A stretch of DNA of 37,824 nt from an uncultured Clostridia bacterium (lineage in GTDB: Bacteria; Bacillota; Clostridia; Christensenellales; Borkfalkiaceae), in contig CAJFGA010000014.1 in the NCBI GenBank assembly GCA_904374385.1, forward strand, positions 1 to 37,824. Reading direction: 5' to 3'. The position numbers and the translations under genes were made by a program. The notes beneath the pieces were generated by a model. That model had not been told where the DNA came from and made no database searches. It saw only the letters and a list, made by a program, of their open reading frames with translations. Each line of letters starts with the position of its first letter. Positions within the stretch are counted from its first letter, which is position 1. This document shows, one piece after another, positions 6,644-36,453 of the stretch.

Positions 6644-6670
6644 TATATCATATTTTTCGCCCCATTACAA
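6642..6670 (-). promoter_or_regulatory. rsmG promoter, possibly giving a leaderless mRNA
   Basis: On the minus strand TTGTAA (6670-6665) and TATAAT (6647-6642) have a 17-base spacer. The -10 overlaps the first ATG, so the expected start point is at or next to the second ATG (6634). No ribosome binding site is visible. Confidence 0.65.
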
Positions 6671-7079
6671 TGTTTTGCAACCTTTTTATTTTCCACTTAT
6701 TCAGAATTTGTCCTTCCACATTGTGGAAAAATTTCTTGATAACCTCTTCGGTTATTCATTTTTGCTCCTTTCAAAATTTTTTCTTCTCTCTTACCTTTCT
6801 TTTTTTATATTCATTTATCCACACAGGCTAAACCTTTCCCCTCTCTCTTCACAGCCTTTTCAACAAAAATTTCCTCCCTTGTCCACAAGGATTGCGAGGC
6901 AAGTTGCTTGCTTTTTGCGCCGTTTTTTTATATAATGATTAGGAAAAAGAAAAGATTTGTGAAATTTTTCCACAAATCTACACGGCCTATTATTAAATAA
7001 CAACATTTAAAAGAATAAATATTTAAAATAAATCTTTCCCGCACAGGGCGGTCTGGGAACGATTTACGGGAGGAACAGC
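6644..7079. other. AT-rich origin-like intergenic region with DnaA boxes before dnaN
   Basis: This 436-base gene-free gap separates leftward rsmG from rightward dnaN. It holds a perfect DnaA box TTATCCACA at 6815-6823 and near matches TTGTCCACA (6879-6887), TTTTCCACA (6966-6974) and TGTGGAAAA on the reverse strand (6722-6730). It also has long T-rich tracts. The divergent flanking genes and dnaN placement resemble the dnaA-dnaN side of an origin, but dnaA itself is absent. Confidence 0.6.
6908..6936 (+). promoter_or_regulatory. dnaN promoter
   Basis: TTGCTT (6908-6913) and TATAAT (6931-6936) have a 17-base spacer. The predicted leader before dnaN is about 135 bases and includes one DnaA-box-like site (6966-6974), so DnaA could influence transcription here. 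Confidence 0.65.
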
Positions 7080-8180
7080 ATGAAGATCATTTGCGAAGGC
7101 ATAGAACTTTCGGATGCGGTGATGAAGGTAGTTAAGGCATGCAGCACAAAGACGACCAATCCCATCCTCGAAACGATCAAAATTTCGGCGGAAAACGACG
7201 TTTTGACCCTGCTCGCTACGGACGGCGAAATTTCTATTCAAAAGAAGATCAAAGCGGAAGTGCTGGAAGAGGGCGTGGCGTGCGTGCCCGGTAAATATTT
7301 TTCTGACTTTATTAAAAAACTGGAAAACGCACAGCTGACGCTGACATGCGAGAGCGACAAACTGGATATCCGTTACGGAGATTCGGAAAGCAGCATCCAG
7401 GTATTGCCCGCGGAAGATTTTCCCGCCATCGATATGAAGATAGACGAGAAAAGTTTTTCTCTCCTTTCCAAAGATCTGAAGGATCTGATCGCCAAGACGA
7501 CCTTTTGCTGTGCGCAGGACGATTCCCGGCCCGTTTTAAAGGGATGCCTCATTGAAGCGAAGGAGGGAACCGTCACCTTTACGGCGCTGGACGGCTACCG
7601 CATGGCGATCGCGCGCAGGGATGTTTCCGCCGCCAACGGCGACGTGCGCATCATCTGCCCCGCCCGCACATTGAACGAGATCGGCAGGATGATCTCTGCG
7701 GAGGAAGAGCCCCTCGAAGTGTTTGTACAGAAAAACATGCTGCTTGTCAGCATCGAAGACACCGTGCTTACGAGCCGGCTGTACGAGGGAGATTTCATCA
7801 ACGTTTCCAACATCATACCCAAGGCGTTTACGAGCGAAATCGTGGTAGACAAAAAAGTTTTGGACGAGAGCGTAGACCGCGCTTCGGTGCTGGCGCGCAC
7901 GGATAAGAACAGCATCCTCTGCTTCGATATCAAAGAAAACGGTATGGCGATCACTTCGAATACGTCCATAGGCAGGGTAGACGAAAGCGTGCCGGTGGAA
8001 CTGGAGGGAAAGGACGTGAGTATCGCCCTCAACAGCAAATATATCGGGGAATGCCTTTCCGCAGTCGACGAAGAGAAGGTGCGCATTTGTTTTAACGGGG
8101 CGGTATCTCCCTGCGTCGTACTGCCGAAAGAGGGAGATTCTTTCCTTTATTTGATACTTCCCGTGCGTACAACGGCATAA
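7080..8180 (+). CDS. dnaN: DNA polymerase III beta subunit (sliding clamp)
   Basis: The 366-residue protein matches the clamp family in length and in landmark stretches: a TTNPILETIKI segment near the start, LLATDGEISIQ, PVLKGCLIEA with ALDGYRMAIAR in the middle domain, and the C-terminal LPVRT. It forms the ring dimer that tethers the replicative polymerase. The ATG follows GGGAGGA at ideal spacing. It is normally preceded by dnaA; here it is preceded by a non-coding gap and leftward rsmG. Confidence 0.97.
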   Translation: MKIICEGIELSDAVMKVVKACSTKTTNPILETIKISAENDVLTLLATDGEISIQKKIKAEVLEEGVACVPGKYFSDFIKKLENAQLTLTCESDKLDIRYGDSESSIQVLPAEDFPAIDMKIDEKSFSLLSKDLKDLIAKTTFCCAQDDSRPVLKGCLIEAKEGTVTFTALDGYRMAIARRDVSAANGDVRIICPARTLNEIGRMISAEEEPLEVFVQKNMLLVSIEDTVLTSRLYEGDFINVSNIIPKAFTSEIVVDKKVLDESVDRASVLARTDKNSILCFDIKENGMAITSNTSIGRVDESVPVELEGKDVSIALNSKYIGECLSAVDEEKVRICFNGAVSPCVVLPKEGDSFLYLILPVRTTA

Positions 8181-8256: not shown

Positions 8257-8391
8257 ATGAAGAGAACTTACCAGCCTAAAAAGAGGCAGAGAAGCAAAGT
8301 ACACGGTTTTCGTCAGAGAATGAAGACCCAGGGAGGCAGAAAGACCCTGAAGAGAAGGAGAGACAAGGGCAGAAAGAAGATCTCTGCTTGA
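8257..8391 (+). CDS. rpmH: 50S ribosomal protein L34
   Basis: This 44-residue, strongly basic protein reads [14 protein letters not shown], then HGFRQRMKT, then [14 protein letters not shown], the classic L34 pattern. AGGAG precedes the ATG. It directly precedes rnpA, as in nearly all bacteria. Confidence 0.98.
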
Positions 8392-18149: not shown

Positions 18150-18698
18150 TCATACTGCGTCGGCATGCGCGTAACTCGTAACAAAGGAAGAAAGTGCCTC
18201 TGCTATAATGCCCGCCATTTTGTAGACGAGGCTGAGCCGCGTTAAATTGAGCAAAGAGTAGTTAAAGACGGACTTTTCCGCAACGATGCCCATAATACTC
18301 ACATCGCCGATGGCGTCGAATTTCTTATTAGCCCCTAAACCGGGCCGTAGCCCCTTATTGCTGATTTTGATCAGGCCGATATCGCCGGCATCCCCTACCG
18401 CCGCGTCTACGGCAATGATTTTAGATCCGGGATGTGTCCTTTTTAGGAAGTCACCGAGATACTTTATTTCCTTTGCGGTGACGGGATTTTTGAGTGTGCC
18501 GTAAATAAACGCACCTGCATTGAGAGCATCAGTCTGCGTCATTGTCCCGACGACGGGGCCGAGACTGTCGCCAATCGCCAGATCGCTGCCAATGCATAAA
18601 ATGACGGGCGGTGCAGTCATTTCTTTTAAAAAACCGTTTAAAGTCATAATAATTCCCGTCGGTGCCATCTTATTGAACATATTAAAAGAGTATTCCAT
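18150..18698 (-). CDS. yyaC: Sporulation-associated protein YyaC (GPR-like peptidase fold)
   Basis: The 182-residue protein shows the YyaC/DUF1256 pattern: PVILCIGSDLAIGDSLGPVVG, FIYGTLKNPVTAKEI, IIAVDAAVGDAGDIGLIKI, GLRPGLGANKKFDAIGDVSIMGIV and LLNLTRLSLVYKMA. The family shares the fold of the germination protease GPR and is found in spore formers, often near parB. Its substrate is unknown. AAAGGG lies about nine bases before the ATG. It implies, but does not prove, a sporulating ancestor. Confidence 0.92.
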   Translation of the reverse strand: MEYSFNMFNKMAPTGIIMTLNGFLKEMTAPPVILCIGSDLAIGDSLGPVVGTMTQTDALNAGAFIYGTLKNPVTAKEIKYLGDFLKRTHPGSKIIAVDAAVGDAGDIGLIKISNKGLRPGLGANKKFDAIGDVSIMGIVAEKSVFNYSLLNLTRLSLVYKMAGIIAEALSSFVTSYAHADAV

Positions 18699-18812: not shown

Positions 18813-18983
18813 TGTGCATAAAGTGAGTTGCAACGCAAGCATCGGTTTTCTAAAATCATTGCATATCATCAAAAGCATGCAATTATCCACAGAATTGTGC
18901 ACAATTTTGTAGATAAAAGCGTTATGAACACGAATAAAAGCCGCTATACAATTATACATTCATTATGCACACACTGTGGATAA
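18813..18983. promoter_or_regulatory. DnaA box cluster
   Basis: Exact TTATNCACA sites lie at 18813-18821 (reverse), 18883-18891 (TTATCCACA), 18963-18971 (TTATGCACA) and 18975-18983 (reverse TTATCCACA). The last two face each other three bases apart. Near matches are TTGTGCACAA at 18895 and TTTGTGGAAAA at about 19025. AT-rich sequence follows. Confidence 0.75.
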
Positions 18984-19672
18984 AATGCACAAGGAAAAAT
19001 TCAAAGTGCAAATCTATTTCGCGTTTGTGGAAAATTATGACGCATGATAAAATTGTGTATGTTAAAATATGGAACGCAGAGTGCAATTTAATAAAAATGA
19101 TATGATAATTTTGCGCGTTTAGCCATTGTCAGAATATTCGAAAGCGTCTTGGGTATAAAAGTCTATAGGTAGATGTCGCGTCATTGTATAATAAAAGTTA
19201 ATAAAGCATAATGCACTGCACTTTTTTGCTAAATAATGGGATCGCCAAATTTTTACTTGCGTTCCACCTCGTTTGAATGCCGCTAACCCCATTAACGTCG
19301 AATTTGTGTTTCATACCCCTTTTTTTATTCAAAAATTCATTTTTTTTCTAAAATTATGCCAAAAAAGCCTCATTCTGGGCATTTTTAAGAGAATTTGAGC
19401 AGGATAAAAACTGTTGAATTTTGAGGCAAAAATCGGTAAAAAATGCCACGCGCTACATCGATTTTTCGATCAAAAACCCAATTTTCAACCATTTTTGGCC
19501 TTTTAAAAAACGCTCTCAGACGATTTGAGACAGAATAATTTTCATTTTCCCCAAAAAAGCCGACCTAAAAACGACTTAAAATCTGTTTAAAATCGAGTTT
19601 TTAGTTGATTTTGCCTGCCTGATTCTTTTATTTTTGTTTTACTGATAAAAATTTCATCACCGAGACGTTTTC

Positions 19673-19688
19673 GGTTTCACGTGAAGCA
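19673..19688. promoter_or_regulatory. parS-like site 1
   Basis: GGTTTCACGTGAAGCA differs at two positions from the consensus TGTTTCACGTGAAACA and keeps the CACGTG centre. Confidence 0.75.
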
Positions 19689-19745
19689 TATATTGCACCA
19701 GTTTTATCAAAAACTTAAAAGTAGCGCATTACATAATCACGTTTA

Positions 19746-19761
19746 TGTTTCATGTGTAACA
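19746..19761. promoter_or_regulatory. parS-like site 2 (degenerate)
   Basis: TGTTTCATGTGTAACA has two changes from the parS consensus and both outer ends intact. Confidence 0.6.
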
Positions 19762-19793
19762 TAACTTATTTATATACGCGCGCATGCTTGAAT

Positions 19794-19809
19794 AGTTTCA
19801 CGTGAAACA
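19794..19809. promoter_or_regulatory. parS site 3 (best match)
   Basis: AGTTTCACGTGAAACA matches the parS consensus at 15 of 16 positions, with a perfect 14-bp palindrome. It is the likely primary ParB loading site. Confidence 0.9.
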
Positions 19810-19825
19810 ATCAAATCATCGGTAA

Positions 19826-19841
19826 GGTTTCATATGAAACA
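19826..19841. promoter_or_regulatory. parS-like site 4 (degenerate)
   Basis: GGTTTCATATGAAACA keeps palindromic symmetry but has CATATG in place of the central CACGTG. Confidence 0.55.
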
Positions 19842-20586: not shown

Positions 20587-22569
20587 ATGAGCAAAACGGC
20601 AAAAATAGTACTGTGGACGATTCTCGGCATAGTGCTCATTATCATTCTCGTTTCCGTTTTGACGAGTCTGCTCAGCGGTGGAAGAGAGATAGATTATTCC
20701 GAAGTAGAGCGGCACGTTTCGGCGGGCGAGATCGATCGAATTGTTGTAGATGACTACAACCTGATCTGCTATAAAAACGGCAGAATTGTATATGAAACGA
20801 CGTACGGCAGAATGGAGTGGGACGCGCAGAAGCTGGACGAGTGGGTCACTTTAGCTAAGAATAATGGCTACACGCTAACTTATACCTATACCGATCCCAA
20901 CGCGGGCAGCTTCATTTCCTATTTGATCCCGATCATCGGCATCGTGCTCGTCTGCGTGGTGTTCTGGCTTTTGATACGCCAGACGCAAGGCGGCAGCAGC
21001 AAGGCGATGAGCTTTGCAAAGACAAAGGCGCGCGTCAATTCAAATATAAAAGTGCGCTTTTCCGATGTTGCTGGCGCTGAAGAAGAAAAACAAGAGCTCG
21101 CAGAGGTGGTCGAATTTCTAAAAAGTCCTCGAAAATTCTCCGATTTAGGCGCGCGCATCCCGCGCGGCGTATTGCTTGTCGGCCCTCCGGGCACCGGTAA
21201 AACGCTGTTTGCGAAGGCTGTCGCCGGCGAGGCGAACGTGCCGTTCTTTTCTATTTCCGGCTCCGACTTCGTCGAAATGTTCGTCGGCGTCGGTGCATCG
21301 AGGGTGAGGGATCTTTTCGACGCGGCAAAGAAAAGTCAACCCTGTATCGTGTTCATCGATGAAATCGACGCAGTCGGCCGCCAAAGGGGCACGGGGCTCG
21401 GAGGCGGGCACGACGAGCGCGAACAGACGCTCAACCAGTTGCTCGTGCAGATGGACGGCTTTGAAACGAATGAAGGCATTATCGTCATGGCGGCAACGAA
21501 CCGCGCCGACATTTTGGATCCTGCGCTGCTCCGTCCGGGGCGCTTCGACCGGCAAATCCATGTGAATTTGCCCGATGTGCGCGGCAGGGAGGCGATCTTA
21601 AAAGTGCATGCGCGCAATAAACCGCTCGCACCCGACGTTAATTTTAAAATACTTTCCCGCATGACCAGCGGTTTTTCCGGCGCGGATCTGGAAAACCTTC
21701 TCAATGAGGCAGCGATCCTCACCGCGCGGGCCAATAAAAAGATGATCGGCAATAAAGAGCTGTTCGAGGGGATCAACAAAGTGCTCCTCGGCCCGCAGAA
21801 AAAGAGCAGACTGGTCACGGAGTCCGACAAACGGATCACGGCATACCACGAAAGCGGACATGCGATCATCGCGAAGCTCTGCAAGCACTGCGATCCCGTG
21901 CAAGAAGTATCCATCATTGCCCGCGGTATGGCAGCAGGGTACACGATGACCCGCCCCGACAACGATGACAACCATATGACCAAGGCGAAGATGACCGACC
22001 TCGTCTGCGAATTGCTCGGCGGCCGCGTGGCGGAGGAATTGGTCATCAAAGACGTATCGACGGGGGCATCCAACGATCTGCAGCGCGTAACGGAGATCGC
22101 CCGCAAGATGGTCACCGAATGGGGCATGAGCGAGCGCGTCGGCCTTGTGACGTACGGATCGGACAACCCGATCTTCCTCGGCAGAGATATGGAGGCTCAC
22201 AATTCCTACAGCGAAGAGACGGCGGGCCTGATCGACGAAGAGGTGCACAAAATTATCGAGTCGGCTCACGACCGTGCCGTGAAACTGTTGACGGAAAACA
22301 GGAAAGTTCTCGACAACATGGCGCGCGTACTCGTCGAAAGGGAAACGATCTACACCGAAGAAGTGGATATGCTTCTCGAAGGTGCGACGGTGGAAGAAGT
22401 GTACGCCCATATGGACCGCTATGAGAAAGCGGAAGAAGAAAATCCTTTCAAACGCTTTATCGACACGGAAAGCGAAAAGTCTGAAAGCGGAGCGGGCGAC
22501 CCCGCGGCCGGAAGCAAAGCCGAACCGCCTGCGAACGAAAACAAAAAGGACGATAACGGCAAAAATTAA
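20587..22569 (+). CDS. ftsH: ATP-dependent zinc metalloprotease FtsH
   Basis: FtsH is a membrane-anchored hexameric AAA+ protease for misfolded membrane and regulatory proteins. In this 660-residue protein one helix lies near residues 9-31 and a second near 110-130 around a short external domain. Walker A GPPGTGKT is at 199-206, followed by FIDEIDAVG and the GRFDRQ region. The zinc site is HESGH (421-425) with Asp497 in SNDLQ. I chose the ATG at 20587 for its AAGGAG; nine more codons exist upstream. The acidic C-terminal tail is low complexity. Its position directly before parA is unusual. Confidence 0.97.
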
Positions 22570-22687: not shown

Positions 22688-23461
22688 ATGGGAAAGATCG
22701 TTTCGTTTTCAAACCAAAAGGGGGGCGTGGGCAAAACCACGACCTGCGTGAACATGGCGGCGTACATAGCCGTTACCGGCAAAAAAGTCCTGCTTGTCGA
22801 TATCGATCCGCAGGGCAACGCCACGACGGGGCTGGGGTTTTCGAAAAGTTCGCTGAAAAAATCAGTCTATAACGTATTGATCGACGACGAAAAAGCGTCC
22901 GACAATATTTTAAAAACGGAATTGGAAGGGCTCGACCTGTTGCCTTCCAACATCGACCTTGCCGGTGCAGAGGTCGAACTCGTCTATAAAAAAGGCCGCG
23001 AAAAGATCTTAAAAAATGCTCTGGAAGATCTCAAGAAGGTGTACGATTATATCATGATCGACTGTCCTCCTTCCCTCGGACTTTTAACCATCAACGCGCT
23101 CGCCGCGGCGGATTCGGTCATCATTCCCATCCAAAGCGAATATTACGCGTTGGAAGGGCTGTCGCAGCTGATGAATTCGATCACGCTCGTAAAGCAGCAT
23201 CTCAATCCGGAACTGGAAGTGGACGGGGTCGTGCTGACAATGTACGACAGCCGTTCGCTGATCTCTAAACAGATCGCCGATGAGATCCGTAAATTCTTTA
23301 CCCGCCGCGTCTTCGAAATCGTCGTGCCGCGCAATATCCGCCTTGTCGAGGCGACGTCATACGGAAAACCCATCGTGCTGCACGATCCCAAATGCGCGGG
23401 TGCCCGTGCCTATAAAGCCCTCACGCAGGAATATTTGGGCAAAGAGAAGGAAAAGAACTGA
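22688..23461 (+). CDS. parA: Chromosome partitioning ATPase ParA/Soj
   Basis: This 257-residue ParA has the deviant Walker A KGGVGKTT (residues 11-18) with its signature lysine, DIDPQGNATTGLG, and IMIDCPPSLGLLTINAL. It binds DNA non-specifically and drives ParB-parS movement; Soj also tunes DnaA. The ATG at 22688 follows AGAGGTG. An upstream in-frame GTG would add three residues. parB lies 103 bases downstream. Confidence 0.96.
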   Translation: MGKIVSFSNQKGGVGKTTTCVNMAAYIAVTGKKVLLVDIDPQGNATTGLGFSKSSLKKSVYNVLIDDEKASDNILKTELEGLDLLPSNIDLAGAEVELVYKKGREKILKNALEDLKKVYDYIMIDCPPSLGLLTINALAAADSVIIPIQSEYYALEGLSQLMNSITLVKQHLNPELEVDGVVLTMYDSRSLISKQIADEIRKFFTRRVFEIVVPRNIRLVEATSYGKPIVLHDPKCAGARAYKALTQEYLGKEKEKN

Positions 23462-23564: not shown

Positions 23565-24506
23565 ATGAAAACGAACAGAGGATTGGGCAGGGGGCTTTCG
23601 GCTCTGTTTTCTGATACGGAAGAGGCATATGAAAATGCGGCAAAACAGCCGATCTCTTCCGCGGATGTACCCGACGCGCCTTTGCCTGAGGATATCAAGG
23701 GCCTGACCGAGGTGAATATCGATCTCGTTCGGCCCAACCCCAATCAGCCGCGAAAGCACTTCGACGAGGATGCGCTCCGCGAATTGGCTGATTCCATCAA
23801 AAAGCATGGGATGATCATGCCGATCGTCGTCAACAATATGGAAGACGGCAAGTATATGATCATCGCGGGCGAACGCCGCTACCGCGCGGCAAAAATGGCG
23901 GGAAAAACCACGATCCCCGTCGTCATCCGCGAGTACACCGACCGCGAGATCAAAGAGATCTCGCTGATCGAAAACCTGCAGAGAGAGGATCTGAACCCCA
24001 TCGAGGCGGCGACGGCGATGAAACAGCTGATGGATGAATATCACCTCACGCAGGAAGAACTTGCCGAAAGGATCGGCAAAAGCCGCCCGGCCGTCACCAA
24101 CACGCTGCGGCTGCTGTCTCTCTCGCCCGAAGTCATTCAAATGGTCTCTTCCGGCAAGCTGAGCGCGGGGCATGCGCGCGCTTTGGTCACGCTGCCGGAA
24201 GACGTGCAGTATAAACTTGCAAACGATACCGTTAAAGACGGCCTGTCCGTCCGCGACATCGAGCGGAGCGTGCGCGATTATTTTGCCACGCCCGAAGAAT
24301 TGGCGGATAAAAAAGACAAGAAAAAGCTGCAGGTGTCCATAGAGTTGAAAGACCTCATCGAGCGGATGCGGCATACGTTCAAAACGAAGGTGTCTTTGAT
24401 CGGCAATGACCGCAAGGGCAGGATCTATATCGACTATTACAACACCGACGACTTGGATCGCATCAGCGAGATCGTCGATATGGTCGATAAAAAAGAAGGA
24501 AGATAA
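23565..24506 (+). CDS. parB: Chromosome partitioning protein ParB/Spo0J
   Basis: ParB is a CTP-dependent clamp loaded at parS. The 313 residues show the N-terminal ParA-activating GLGRGLSALF, NPNQPRKHF, the CTP-binding GERRYRAAK (102-110) and ENLQREDLNPIE (136-147). A helix-turn-helix near 162-187 (LTQEELAERIGKSRPAVTNTLRLL) and a C-terminal dimerisation part follow. AAGGAG precedes the ATG. Matching parS sites lie about 3.8 kb upstream. Confidence 0.97.
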   Translation: MKTNRGLGRGLSALFSDTEEAYENAAKQPISSADVPDAPLPEDIKGLTEVNIDLVRPNPNQPRKHFDEDALRELADSIKKHGMIMPIVVNNMEDGKYMIIAGERRYRAAKMAGKTTIPVVIREYTDREIKEISLIENLQREDLNPIEAATAMKQLMDEYHLTQEELAERIGKSRPAVTNTLRLLSLSPEVIQMVSSGKLSAGHARALVTLPEDVQYKLANDTVKDGLSVRDIERSVRDYFATPEELADKKDKKKLQVSIELKDLIERMRHTFKTKVSLIGNDRKGRIYIDYYNTDDLDRISEIVDMVDKKEGR

Positions 24507-33098: not shown

Positions 33099-34772
33099 AT
33101 GAAAAGAAAAATATTAAGTTTGCTTTTAGGGCTGATTATGCTGCTGCCGCTTTGCTTAGCGGCGTGCTCCGGCGGGCAAAATGAAGATCCGAACGATAAC
33201 CCTCCGATCGTGACGCCCGGTGATCCCGATGACGGACTATATCCTTCGGATCCGAATTTCGATGCGCTTTCCGGGTTTGATTCAACCGATACATCGCGGT
33301 GGGGCGAGGCGAAGGCTCACGACCCGTCCGTGATCGAAGCGGACGGCAAGTTTTATGTCTTTTCGACGGATAACGACGGCGGGTACGGATATCAAGTTCG
33401 CACATCGGATGATCTGATCCATTGGAGTTTTGTCGGGTTCGCTATCGAAAATTGCGGTACGAGCGTATCGGATGCGAAGTCCACTTACGAGGCAGGCAAC
33501 GGCGGCTTGCAGGAAGTATACGAAATTTTGGTCGAAGATTCCGAGTGGGGCAGAACTTCTTCCGGCACTTATGACCCTAACGGCACATGGACGCTTTGGG
33601 CGCCCGACGTGGTAAAAGGAAGTGACGGTAAATATTGGCTGTACGGCTGCTGGACGGCAGGGTTCGGGCAGGGGCATTCCGTTATCTTTCTCTGCAAGGC
33701 AAATTCCGTTACGGGGCCCTATTCCTTTGATTCCATTTTGCTGTATTCATACGACGGTTGGCCGACGAACTACAGTAATCCCAATGCGATAGATCCGCAA
33801 ATCTACTATGTGGGCGACCGGATGTTTATGGCATATGGCTCGTTTAGCGGCGGTACTTGGACGATCGAACTTGATCCGGAAACAGGATTGCGTGCAGACG
33901 GACTTTCGGGGAACGATTTGCTCCCTGAAGGGAATAAGACGCCGGCGGAGCGCTACGGCGAACGTTTGGTCAACGGTACTGTAACGGAAGGCCCCACGAT
34001 AAATTATCATGAAAACGTCGCGATTTATCCTGACGATGTAGAGTCCATTCGCAATTATGACGAATCGAAGCTGACTTATGAAGACCGCTATTATTTGATG
34101 GGCTCGGCAAACAGTTTAAGTTCGGATTATAATATGCGCAGCTTTGTCGGCACGATCGGAGAAGACGGCTTGCCGGAATTTACTTCCTATTTAGGGGACA
34201 ACGGCAACCGTGTCAGCGGCTCGTTCTCGTGGAAAACCCGCAGAACAGACAGGGATATCAGCTTTGATTTCTTTGCGCCCGGGCATAACGATATGCTTAC
34301 TACGTCCGACGGTAAAAACGTGATCGTGTATCATAACCGCCTTACGCTCGGCTCTGCGGGCAATCACTATCTGTTTGTCAGCTCGTATGCTTTTAACTCT
34401 CGCGGCGATTTGGTGATTAATCCAAACCGCTATGCGGGGGAAACGCTTCGTACGATCGAAACAGAAGAACTTGCGGATAAAGAATTCTATTATGTTTTGG
34501 TTGACAGCAATAACTATGCGGGGCTTGAAAACGGCGGCTATGCACAATCCGGTTTGGTTCTGAATGCCGACAACACCATCTCTCTCAATGACGAAGAAGC
34601 CGGTGTATGGTATTTGTACGGCGATTATTATGTATACATGCAACTGAACGGTACGGAGTATTACGGTGTTGCAATGCCCGCTTGGATCCAAAAGGAAAGC
34701 GCGGGCGGGATCACGATTTCTTTGCTCAGTAAAGACGGTGCCGACACCCTTTATATGAATATCAATTTGTAA
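33099..34772 (+). CDS. Exported GH43 lipoprotein, probable arabinanase
   Basis: This 557-residue protein has lipobox LAAC (Cys23) followed by an Asp/Pro-rich linker. The five-bladed GH43 catalytic domain shows Asp75 in AHDPSVI, Asp232 in NAIDPQIYY and the acid Glu297 in VTEGPTI. WAPDVV and YLMGSANSL are also typical. The C-terminal part has PGHNDML and NRYAGE as in two-domain arabinanases of the Abn2 kind, then a beta domain. It probably cuts arabinan outside the cell, releasing arabino-oligosaccharides; substrate is inferred. It is paralogous to the gene at 34996. Confidence 0.88.
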   Translation: MKRKILSLLLGLIMLLPLCLAACSGGQNEDPNDNPPIVTPGDPDDGLYPSDPNFDALSGFDSTDTSRWGEAKAHDPSVIEADGKFYVFSTDNDGGYGYQVRTSDDLIHWSFVGFAIENCGTSVSDAKSTYEAGNGGLQEVYEILVEDSEWGRTSSGTYDPNGTWTLWAPDVVKGSDGKYWLYGCWTAGFGQGHSVIFLCKANSVTGPYSFDSILLYSYDGWPTNYSNPNAIDPQIYYVGDRMFMAYGSFSGGTWTIELDPETGLRADGLSGNDLLPEGNKTPAERYGERLVNGTVTEGPTINYHENVAIYPDDVESIRNYDESKLTYEDRYYLMGSANSLSSDYNMRSFVGTIGEDGLPEFTSYLGDNGNRVSGSFSWKTRRTDRDISFDFFAPGHNDMLTTSDGKNVIVYHNRLTLGSAGNHYLFVSSYAFNSRGDLVINPNRYAGETLRTIETEELADKEFYYVLVDSNNYAGLENGGYAQSGLVLNADNTISLNDEEAGVWYLYGDYYVYMQLNGTEYYGVAMPAWIQKESAGGITISLLSKDGADTLYMNINL

Positions 34773-34804
34773 TGTGCAAAGAGATTCAACGAAAAATATA
34801 GTCT

Positions 34805-34827
34805 GCCGTGCAGGAGCGCTGCACGGC
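34805..34827 (+). terminator. Hairpin after the exported GH43 gene
   Basis: GCCGTGCAG and CTGCACGGC pair around GAGCG. It is not followed by a clear T tract, so its strength as a terminator is doubtful. Confidence 0.5.
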
Positions 34828-34903
34828 GGATAAATCGTTGCAAAAACGTATCGTTCACCTATGGAATGAGCGGAAAAACTCATAAAAAACGCCGGTCTTT
34901 TGC

Positions 34904-34932
34904 TTGCAACCTGTCGTGCAATGGTGTATAAT
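34904..34932 (+). promoter_or_regulatory. Promoter of the cytoplasmic GH43 gene
   Basis: TTGCAA (34904-34909) and TATAAT (34927-34932) have a 17-base spacer. The start point is expected near 34939. Confidence 0.75.
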
Positions 34933-34942
34933 ACGTTGCGTT

Positions 34943-34977
34943 AAGGCGGTTTGATGAAAACCGCCTTCTATTTTTCT
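34943..34977 (+). promoter_or_regulatory. Terminator-like hairpin at the 5' end of the GH43 message
   Basis: AAGGCGGTTT (34943-34952) and AAACCGCCTT (34958-34967) form a 10-bp stem around GATGA, followed by CTATTTTTCT. It begins only a few bases after the predicted start point. The early ATG at 34954 is inside the loop. Confidence 0.6.
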
Positions 34978-34995
34978 GATCGAAATAGGTTTATT

Positions 34996-36453
34996 ATGAA
35001 AGAAGATATGAAAGATTTTCCGAACGGCGTCCGCTTTGACGCCCTCAATCAAGACTGGGAAGCCACCCCCGACAAGTGGGGCGTATTCGGCGTGCACGAT
35101 CCCTCGATGATCGAGGCGGACGGCTATTATTATGTATTTTCCACGGGCACATTCCGCCGCGACCTGTATCAGATCCGCCGTTCCAAAGACCTCATCCATT
35201 GGGAATTTGTCGGCGAAGCATTCACGGGCTTTGACGAACTCAAGCCCGTCGTCGGCACCCTGAAAAAAATTTACGGCGGCGATGTCCGCACGGAAAACCT
35301 TTGGGCGCCCGACGTAGTGCCCGCATATGGCGGCGGCTACTGGCTGTACGGCTGTTATACGGGCGTTTTCGGCAACAATTATTCGGTGATCTATCTCGCC
35401 CATGCCGACGGGATCGAAGGCCCGTACCGCTATGTAGAAATGCTCGTCGTTACGGGCGGCAATTGGGGGCTGGCGCCCAACGCGATCGACCCGCAGATCT
35501 TTTATGACGGAGCGGGCAGGATGTGGATGACATACGGTTCCTTTTACGGCGGCATCCGTATCCTTGAACTCGACCCCGCGACCGGCCTGCGCAAAGACGG
35601 GTTCACCTTCGATATGTTTGAAAAGAGAGAGATCGGGCGTGAAGAATATTACGGCAGGCGCATTCTCACTACGACCAATGCGGAAGGCTCCGTCGTGGCG
35701 TATCATCCCGGGGTACCCGTTTACACGGGCGATATCTTTGCCGAAGCGGAAAATCCCGCCCGCTGGGAGAAAAAAGATCTCTTTTATTTGATGTGTTCCG
35801 CCGATTCCCTCTCTATGGACTACAATATGCGCGTTTGGGCGAGCGAGTCGCCGGACGGCGGCTATATGCAGTGTCCCTACGGCAGGGCAGGGCAAAAGGT
35901 TGCCAGCTCTTTTTCATGGCGTTACGGAGAGGATGACCTTCGCGTCAGTTTCGACTTCTATGTGCCCGGCCACAACGACCTGTATACAACGCGGAACGGC
36001 GTCGACCTCGTCGTGTATCATAACCGCACGCCGTATACCTCGCAGCGCATTCCGCGCCGCCATTACCTGTTTATCAGCATGTATGCGCGCAACGCGAAAG
36101 GGGAACTGGTCATGAGCCCCAACCGCTATGCGGGCGAAAAAATGCGCAAGATCGCGCGGGAAGAACTTGCCGGCAGGGAGTTTGATTATATTCAGCTCGG
36201 TTCCGGCAATTTCGACTGCGCCTTTGCCAAACCCGGTATTCGGTTGGAAGAGGACGGCAGTTTGACCTTAAAAGGAGAAAAGCTGGGGCAATGGAAGCTG
36301 TACGGCGAGTATTACGTTGCGTTTACCTTTGACGGGCTGCAATACTTCGGCGCGGCGATGCCCGCGTGGATCGAAGCGGAAAACGGCCCCGGGATCACCG
36401 TCACGGCGCGCGGGGAAGACGGGCTTTCCTTCTTCCTTAACAGTAAAAACTGA
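34996..36453 (+). CDS. GH43-family glycosidase without export signal
   Basis: This 485-residue GH43 enzyme has Asp35 in VHDPSMI, Asp165 in NAIDPQIFY and Glu230 in NAEGSV. WAPDVV, FYLMCSADSL, PGHNDLYT and NRYAGE match the lipoprotein paralog at 33099 across both domains. It lacks a signal peptide, so it should act in the cytoplasm on imported oligosaccharides. I start at ATG 34996 because the earlier ATG lies in a stable leader hairpin; the ribosome binding site (AGG) is modest. EGS replaces EGP around the catalytic Glu. Confidence 0.85.
   Translation: MKEDMKDFPNGVRFDALNQDWEATPDKWGVFGVHDPSMIEADGYYYVFSTGTFRRDLYQIRRSKDLIHWEFVGEAFTGFDELKPVVGTLKKIYGGDVRTENLWAPDVVPAYGGGYWLYGCYTGVFGNNYSVIYLAHADGIEGPYRYVEMLVVTGGNWGLAPNAIDPQIFYDGAGRMWMTYGSFYGGIRILELDPATGLRKDGFTFDMFEKREIGREEYYGRRILTTTNAEGSVVAYHPGVPVYTGDIFAEAENPARWEKKDLFYLMCSADSLSMDYNMRVWASESPDGGYMQCPYGRAGQKVASSFSWRYGEDDLRVSFDFYVPGHNDLYTTRNGVDLVVYHNRTPYTSQRIPRRHYLFISMYARNAKGELVMSPNRYAGEKMRKIAREELAGREFDYIQLGSGNFDCAFAKPGIRLEEDGSLTLKGEKLGQWKLYGEYYVAFTFDGLQYFGAAMPAWIEAENGPGITVTARGEDGLSFFLNSKN

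What the first reader, a model, noticed from the sequence alone, without database searches (positions are those of the whole stretch)
18813..19841. DnaA boxes and a parS cluster side by side in a 1.9-kb gene-free region
Four exact TTATNCACA boxes (18813-18983) lie 0.7-1 kb from four parS-like palindromes, one matching 15 of 16 consensus bases (19794-19809). yyaC is on one side and ftsH-parA-parB on the other. In Firmicutes these sit near oriC, so this may be the real replication origin and centromere although dnaA and dnaN are not adjacent.
Basis: partly seen in the sequence, partly recalled or inferred. Interest (0 to 1): 0.72.

Follow-up and report, generated by a model that had tools for sequence, protein, structure and literature searches.

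The report
Centromere with DnaA boxes, off-origin
This stretch of a gut bacterium's chromosome holds clustered parS-type sequences, which likely act as its centromere, beside a cluster of binding motifs for the replication starter DnaA, while replication itself likely starts 12 kb away next to dnaN, so the two motif clusters would tie chromosome segregation to the control of replication.

Summary
The motifs are real: four exact TTATNCACA boxes (18813-18983) and four parS-like palindromes (19673-19841) between yyaC and ftsH-parA-parB, rare elsewhere in the genome. The centromere reading holds: 20 of 20 Candidatus Borkfalkia yyaC-ftsH gaps contain parS-like sites. The origin reading does not. 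dnaN is in the window, 12 kb away, and the cumulative GC-skew minimum lies at its 5' side (6886). In Borkfalkia contigs that minimum is within 1 kb of dnaN in 23 of 30, and within 1.5 kb of yyaC in 0 of 23. A DnaA-box plus DnaA-trio unwinding motif lies upstream of dnaN in 26 of 29 Borkfalkia regions and in 0 of 20 yyaC-ftsH gaps. dnaA shares a contig with dnaN in 0 of 32 genomes. So this is a likely centromere with a conserved DnaA-box array (54 boxes in 20 gaps, 2.3 expected), off the origin. Committed mechanism, untested: the array binds DnaA and couples initiation to segregation, as reported at the Caulobacter centromere. Main rival: DnaA control of yyaC.

The parts
18813..18983 (.). DnaA-box array: exact TTATNCACA at 18813(-), 18883(+), 18963(+), 18975(-), with near boxes between
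   Evidence: array enriched in the genus, 54 boxes in 20 gaps against 2.3 shuffled
19673..19841 (.). four parS-like palindromes at 19673-19688, 19746-19761, 19794-19809, 19826-19841
   Evidence: 20 of 20 genus gaps hold sites with at most 2 mismatches; the CATATG-core variant is in 19 of 20 gaps as a k-mer
19505..19538 (+). conserved element of unknown role between the boxes and parS; core 19515-19536
18150..18698 (-). yyaC (DUF1256)
20590..22569 (+). ftsH
22694..23461 (+). parA (ParA-type ATPase)
23565..24506 (+). parB
6644..7079 (.). rsmG-dnaN gap, likely oriC; contains box 6815, near boxes and the skew minimum 6886
6966..6995 (+). unwinding motif: DnaA box TTTTCCACA, 12-bp spacer, three DnaA-trios
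   Evidence: conserved in 26 of 29 genus and 18 of 19 related regions
7080..8180 (+). dnaN

Best explanation
The yyaC-ftsH gap holds a cluster of parS-type sites, likely the chromosome's ParB-bound centromere, beside a conserved array of DnaA boxes that is predicted to bind DnaA, and it is likely not the replication origin, which would lie 12 kb away upstream of dnaN. Shown by sequence: the sites, their conservation, the skew minimum and unwinding motif at dnaN, and the absence of dnaA from both places. Inferred: ParB loads at parS and DnaA occupies the array. Committed mechanism, untested: the array holds DnaA next to ParB and ParA, so that DnaA level or activity is read at the centromere. 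This would either trigger or license movement of parS, as reported for Caulobacter, or draw DnaA away from oriC soon after the origin-proximal DNA is copied, as box clusters outside the origin of B. subtilis suggest.
For: 54 exact boxes in 20 Borkfalkia gaps against 2.3 shuffled. parS-like sites in 20 of 20 of these gaps. Skew minimum within 1 kb of dnaN in 23 of 30 contigs, within 1.5 kb of yyaC in 0 of 23; interval skew points away from dnaN in 22 of 23. Unwinding motif upstream of dnaN in 26 of 29 genus and 18 of 19 related regions, in the yyaC-ftsH gap in 0 of 20 and 0 of 41. dnaA and dnaN on one contig in 0 of 32 Borkfalkia genomes. In 16 other-family genomes 12 boxes lie within 1.5 kb of parS against 1.8 expected, and in three of the four genomes concerned no yyaC is adjacent. 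Precedents: PMC6399470, PMC9945499, PMC5295017 (passages).
Against: No binding data. 4 of 20 Borkfalkia gaps have no exact box. Related lineages have few: boxes in 7 of 41 gaps. Among other families only 4 of 16 show the association. In 11 of 16 Borkfalkia gaps with boxes the nearest box is within 200 bp of yyaC, which suits a promoter role. 7 of 30 contigs have their skew minimum more than 1 kb from dnaN. The unwinding pattern is not order-wide: upstream of dnaN in 7 of 23 other-family genomes, one a weak reverse-strand hit, and upstream of dnaA in 3 of 22, one of them (G048) with dnaA detached.
Confidence: 0.55

Rival explanations
1. The box array is an operator: DnaA regulates transcription of yyaC, a gene named as a sporulation protein, as DnaA does at sda in B. 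subtilis; the nearness to parS is incidental.
For: In 11 of 16 Borkfalkia gaps with boxes the nearest box is within 200 bp of the predicted yyaC 5' end. YyaC matches NCBIfam spore_YyaC. The sda promoter has many DnaA boxes (PMC6399470 passage).
Against: In 5 of 16 gaps the nearest box is 436-2032 bp away. In G007 ORFs of 200-297 aa lie between yyaC and the boxes, which stay on the parS side. In G038, G039 and G048 boxes lie by parS without an adjacent yyaC.
Confidence: 0.22
2. The array is a relic or a passive remnant, for example of the box-rich half of an ancestral two-part origin, with no present role.
For: Clostridial origins are bipartite; C. difficile oriC1 has boxes but no clear trio (PMC7561715 passages). 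dnaA has left the origin in this genus. Box number varies from 0 to 8 per gap.
Against: 54 exact 9-mers against 2.3 expected across 20 species' gaps means they are kept. Few exact boxes in the gaps of related lineages (7 of 41) suit gain or strengthening in Borkfalkia better than decay.
Confidence: 0.13
3. One reading: the yyaC-ftsH gap is the replication origin as well as the centromere.
For: Densest exact box cluster in the genome, AT-rich (32-43% GC), beside parS, with divergent genes on both sides.
Against: Skew minimum at dnaN in 23 of 30 contigs and near yyaC in 0 of 23; interval skew of the wrong sign in 22 of 23; unwinding motif in 0 of 20 and 0 of 41 gaps.
Confidence: 0.07

Closest known systems
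DnaA-binding centromere (parS) of Caulobacter crescentus (Mera et al. 2014; seen only through passages of PMC6399470 and PMC9945499)
   Same: DnaA boxes at the parS locus, near but apart from the origin (about 8 kb there, 12 kb here).
   Different: Another phylum; binding and effect on segregation shown there, only predicted here; oriC here lies by dnaN and dnaA is detached.
DnaA-box clusters outside the origin of Bacillus subtilis (Okumura et al. 2012, not held; summary in PMC5295017, passages)
   Same: Several DnaA boxes outside oriC but close to it; could lower free DnaA.
   Different: There six clusters at several loci, removal gives early initiation; here one cluster beside parS, effect untested. 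Whether any B. subtilis cluster adjoins parS was not seen.
rctA/parS2 of Vibrio cholerae chromosome II (passages of PMC6399470)
   Same: Centromere locus that also binds the replication initiator and seems to draw it from the nearby origin.
   Different: The initiator there is RctB, unrelated to DnaA.
Bipartite origin of Clostridioides difficile (PMC7561715, passages)
   Same: Unwinding half with a DnaA-trio upstream of dnaN (oriC2), like rsmG-dnaN here; a second, trio-free box region.
   Different: There both halves flank dnaA; here dnaA is gone and the trio-free box array is 2.5-26 kb away at the centromere.
Cyanobacterial origins next to dnaN with dnaA elsewhere (PMC7198777, passages)
   Same: oriC near dnaN, dnaA encoded separately (Synechococcus elongatus).
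   Different: Different phylum; no parS-linked box array was noted in the passages seen.

Membership tests
bacterial chromosome origin (oriC) of Clostridium/Bacillus type, for the yyaC-ftsH gap | cluster of DnaA boxes | tested here: met
bacterial chromosome origin (oriC) of Clostridium/Bacillus type, for the yyaC-ftsH gap | DnaA box followed by DnaA-trios (unwinding motif) | tested here: not met
   0 of 20 genus and 0 of 41 related gaps; 26 of 29 and 18 of 19 at rsmG-dnaN
bacterial chromosome origin (oriC) of Clostridium/Bacillus type, for the yyaC-ftsH gap | GC-skew minimum | tested here: not met
bacterial chromosome origin (oriC) of Clostridium/Bacillus type, for the yyaC-ftsH gap | peak of read depth or mapped start of synthesis | not testable with these tools
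   no reads available
ParABS centromere | cluster of parS palindromes near parA-parB | tested here: met
ParABS centromere | origin-proximal position | tested here: met
   12 kb from the likely oriC; dnaN-yyaC distance 2.5-25.7 kb in 23 Borkfalkia contigs
ParABS centromere | ParB binds and the locus segregates first | not testable with these tools
   needs ChIP-seq or imaging
DnaA-bound centromere of Caulobacter type | DnaA boxes beside parS | tested here: met
   recurrent but not universal in the order (4 of 16)
DnaA-bound centromere of Caulobacter type | DnaA binds there and promotes movement of parS | not testable with these tools
oriC-proximal DnaA-box cluster of B. subtilis type | DnaA boxes outside the origin | tested here: met
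oriC-proximal DnaA-box cluster of B. subtilis type | removal alters initiation timing | not testable with these tools
DnaA-regulated yyaC promoter | boxes stay at the yyaC promoter in relatives | tested here: inconclusive
   within 200 bp in 11 of 16, further in 5 of 16; separated by ORFs in G007
datA or DARS of E. coli | IHF-dependent DnaA-ATP hydrolysis or reactivation | not tested
   no IHF search was made

The most novel reading that the evidence does not exclude
A two-part clostridial origin has been pulled apart: the unwinding half stayed with dnaN, dnaA left, and the box-rich half now sits at the centromere, so that DnaA bridging dnaN-oriC and parS over 2.5-26 kb makes origin firing depend on the ParABS complex.
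Probability: 0.17. Interest if true: 0.78.

Novelty: new variant of a known kind. Interest (0 to 1): 0.5.

Why it matters
If DnaA really sits at the Borkfalkia centromere, coupling of initiator and centromere would exist in Clostridia as well as in Caulobacter and Vibrio, and its scattered recurrence (4 of 16 other-family genomes) would make it testable as a convergent control. The same data suggest that when dnaA leaves the origin in this order, the origin tends to stay with dnaN (five of the six detached cases examined outside the genus). That helps origin calling in MAGs, where dnaA is a common landmark.

Tried and rejected
Origin in the yyaC-ftsH gap: rejected on skew and unwinding motif. 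Origin at the relocated dnaA: rejected; of eight dnaA loci seven have the same skew sign on both sides, one turns from slightly positive to negative, none from negative to positive, and none has an exact box within 1 kb (dnaA start positions approximate). Gene-strand bias as the cause of the skew: checked with third codon positions split by gene orientation. Non-coding RNA in the gap: no Rfam family at gathering score; two chance-level hits at E about 0.3. Conserved element as the end of a mobile element: of five second copies examined, four lie just after trypsin-like protease genes and one after a gene with Pfam Lin1244_N, none after a recombinase. As a terminator: script folds of 26 copies show no shared hairpin. 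Stretch 19240-19700 has no match in the plasmid or phage records.

Results that weaken or limit the reading: the trio pattern is upstream of dnaN in 7 of 23 other-family genomes (one weak, reverse strand) and upstream of dnaA in 3 of 22 (G039 weak, G048, G058 reverse strand). In G042 the skew minimum is near neither gene.

Exclusions before counts: one search used Borkfalkia contigs with both dnaN and yyaC (23); its right flank counted 21 because two were under 800 bases. One search used yyaC-ftsH gaps under 9 kb with divergent genes (20 genus, 41 related) and rsmG-dnaN gaps under 1.8 kb with divergent genes (29 genus, 19 related). One search used all 30 fetched Borkfalkia contigs with dnaN; its 7 misses are G001, G007, G010, G015, G018, G030 and G031. 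Related-lineage loci were L114-L143 and L145-L163, 49 of the 80 kept (469 relatives were found there, the best 80 kept); the other 31 have ParA identity 83-94% and were taken as Borkfalkia. One search used 16 of the 24 other-family genomes, those with a parS of at most one mismatch.

Full report
What is there. The window is the whole of contig C14 (37,824 b) of a 1.96 Mb, 101-contig assembly. Order: feoB, a Band-7 (flotillin-type) gene, a gene without Pfam match, a YpsA-type gene and rsmG on the minus strand; dnaN, rpmH (8257-8391, named by eye), rnpA, yidD, yidC and jag on the plus strand; aldehyde dehydrogenase, adenine deaminase, a permease and yyaC on the minus strand with one small plus-strand ORF between; then the gap in question; then ftsH, parA and parB on the plus strand. 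Exact boxes number 57 genome-wide (29 for the reversed pattern), and in that list no other place has even three within 1 kb. parS with up to two mismatches occurs at four places, three of them here.

Who it is. So I take the genus to be Candidatus Borkfalkia, order Christensenellales. More distant relatives in the same scan include Ca. Gallimonas. That they share a family Borkfalkiaceae is recalled, not from a call.

Where replication starts. The window's cumulative GC-skew minimum is at 6886, between rsmG and dnaN. In 23 Borkfalkia contigs with both dnaN and yyaC, the skew of the DNA between them points away from dnaN in 22 of 23 (pooled +0.057). The flank beyond dnaN is positive in only 3 of 23 and the flank beyond yyaC is positive in 19 of 21. 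Third codon positions, averaged by hand over the two gene orientations, give -0.045, +0.077 and +0.065 for the three zones (numbers), so gene direction alone does not explain it. The minimum lies within 1 kb of the dnaN 5' end in 23 of 30 contigs (2.4 expected) and within 1.5 kb of yyaC in 0 of 23.

The unwinding motif. Following published rules (PMC8287927, one section read) I searched for a DnaA box, a spacer of at most 16 bp and at least three trios, with a stricter trio pattern than theirs. It is upstream of dnaN in 26 of 29 Borkfalkia and 18 of 19 related regions (shuffle means 0.2 and 0.1), and in the yyaC-ftsH gap in 0 of 20 and 0 of 41 (shuffle means 1.1 and 0.6). The window copy is 6966-6995, about 85 bp before dnaN. 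It resembles the trio of C. difficile oriC2, the dnaA-dnaN gap that melts with DnaA in vitro when both origin halves are present (PMC7561715, passages). In other families of the order my pattern is found less often: upstream of dnaN in 7 of 23 and of dnaA in 3 of 22.

dnaA has left. dnaA and dnaN were both found in 32 Borkfalkia genomes and share a contig in 0 of 32. Among 22 genomes of other families with both, 15 have them within 2 kb, 4 have them 9-42 kb apart on one contig and 3 on different contigs (same calls). In five of six detached cases that could be examined, the skew minimum of the fetched stretch is within 1.1 kb of the dnaN 5' end (G041, G044, G048, G053, G054; not G042; G039 had only short fragments). 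At eight dnaA loci of the genus the skew never turns from negative to positive, and no exact box lies within 1 kb. So the origin appears to stay with dnaN.

What the gap is. parS-like sites (at most 2 mismatches) are in 20 of 20 Borkfalkia gaps examined and in the same place in related lineages, beside parA-parB: a centromere by sequence. parS with at most one mismatch was found in 26 of 37 Borkfalkia genomes; 10 of the 11 without it also lack yyaC, which suits a missing piece of assembly. The box array is kept as well: 54 exact boxes in 20 gaps against 2.3, with 4 gaps having none. It is weaker in related lineages: 15 against 1.5, in only 7 of 41 gaps. In 16 genomes of other families, boxes within 1.5 kb of parS number 12 against 1.8 expected, 2.0 per 10 kb against 0.5 elsewhere, but all come from 4 genomes (G038, G039, G048, G053). 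The association is recurrent, not universal.

How it may work. In Caulobacter DnaA binds parS about 8 kb from the origin and promotes its movement, and on V. cholerae chromosome II the initiator RctB binds the parS2 locus and seems to be drawn from the origin (PMC6399470 passages; PMC9945499 passages). In B. subtilis a strain without six box clusters outside the origin initiates early (PMC5295017 passages). I commit to a DnaA-binding array that couples initiation with segregation. Binding, coupling and the direction of the effect are inferred. The main rival is DnaA control of yyaC: in 11 of 16 gaps with boxes the nearest is within 200 bp of yyaC. Against it stand G007, where ORFs of 200, 297 and 261 aa separate yyaC from the boxes, and G038, G039 and G048, with boxes at parS but no adjacent yyaC.

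A further conserved element. Between the boxes and parS sits a 34-bp element with core 19515-19536. With up to three mismatches its core is found in 28 of 37 Borkfalkia genomes and in 4 of 24 others, the latter only at three mismatches; the reversed control pattern gives 0 of 37 and 2 of 24. One or both of its k-mers are in 18 of 20 gaps. No Rfam family, plasmid or phage match was found. Its role is open.

Limits. The assembly is a fragmented MAG, as are the relatives, so whole-chromosome skew, coverage and the true dnaA distance are untested. All statements on binding are predictions. Literature: no paper in the held library has both Borkfalkia and oriC; for the broader searches only the listings were seen.

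Noticed in passing
window 19505-19538; L164 6339-6360; L165 6138-6159: A 34-bp element conserved once per genome between the DnaA boxes and parS in most Borkfalkia; perfect second copies in G010 and G036 sit just after the stop codon of trypsin-like protease genes. No known family matched.
   Followed up: partly
G002:C21 (L053): A contig with four strong parS sites and parA/parB only 51-55% identical to the window's, in a genome whose C12 carries the usual yyaC-dnaN order: possibly a contaminating contig.
   Followed up: no
G012:C14 and G012:C32: Two DnaA C-terminal domain hits in one genome: a second dnaA or a mixed bin.
   Followed up: no
G009, G015, G018, G020, G024, G031, G032 (L027, L032, L060, L021, L038, L022, L042): In these Borkfalkia contigs the dnaN-jag block is inverted relative to yyaC-ftsH, so rsmG rather than jag faces parS.
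   Followed up: partly
G000:C1 about 67.9-69.2 kb (L001, L064): dnaA stands alone away from dnaN, with no exact DnaA box within 1 kb, so the usual self-control of dnaA through such boxes may be absent or use weaker sites.
   Followed up: partly
window 33099-36453: Two neighbouring glycosyl hydrolase family 43 genes downstream of parB.
   Followed up: no
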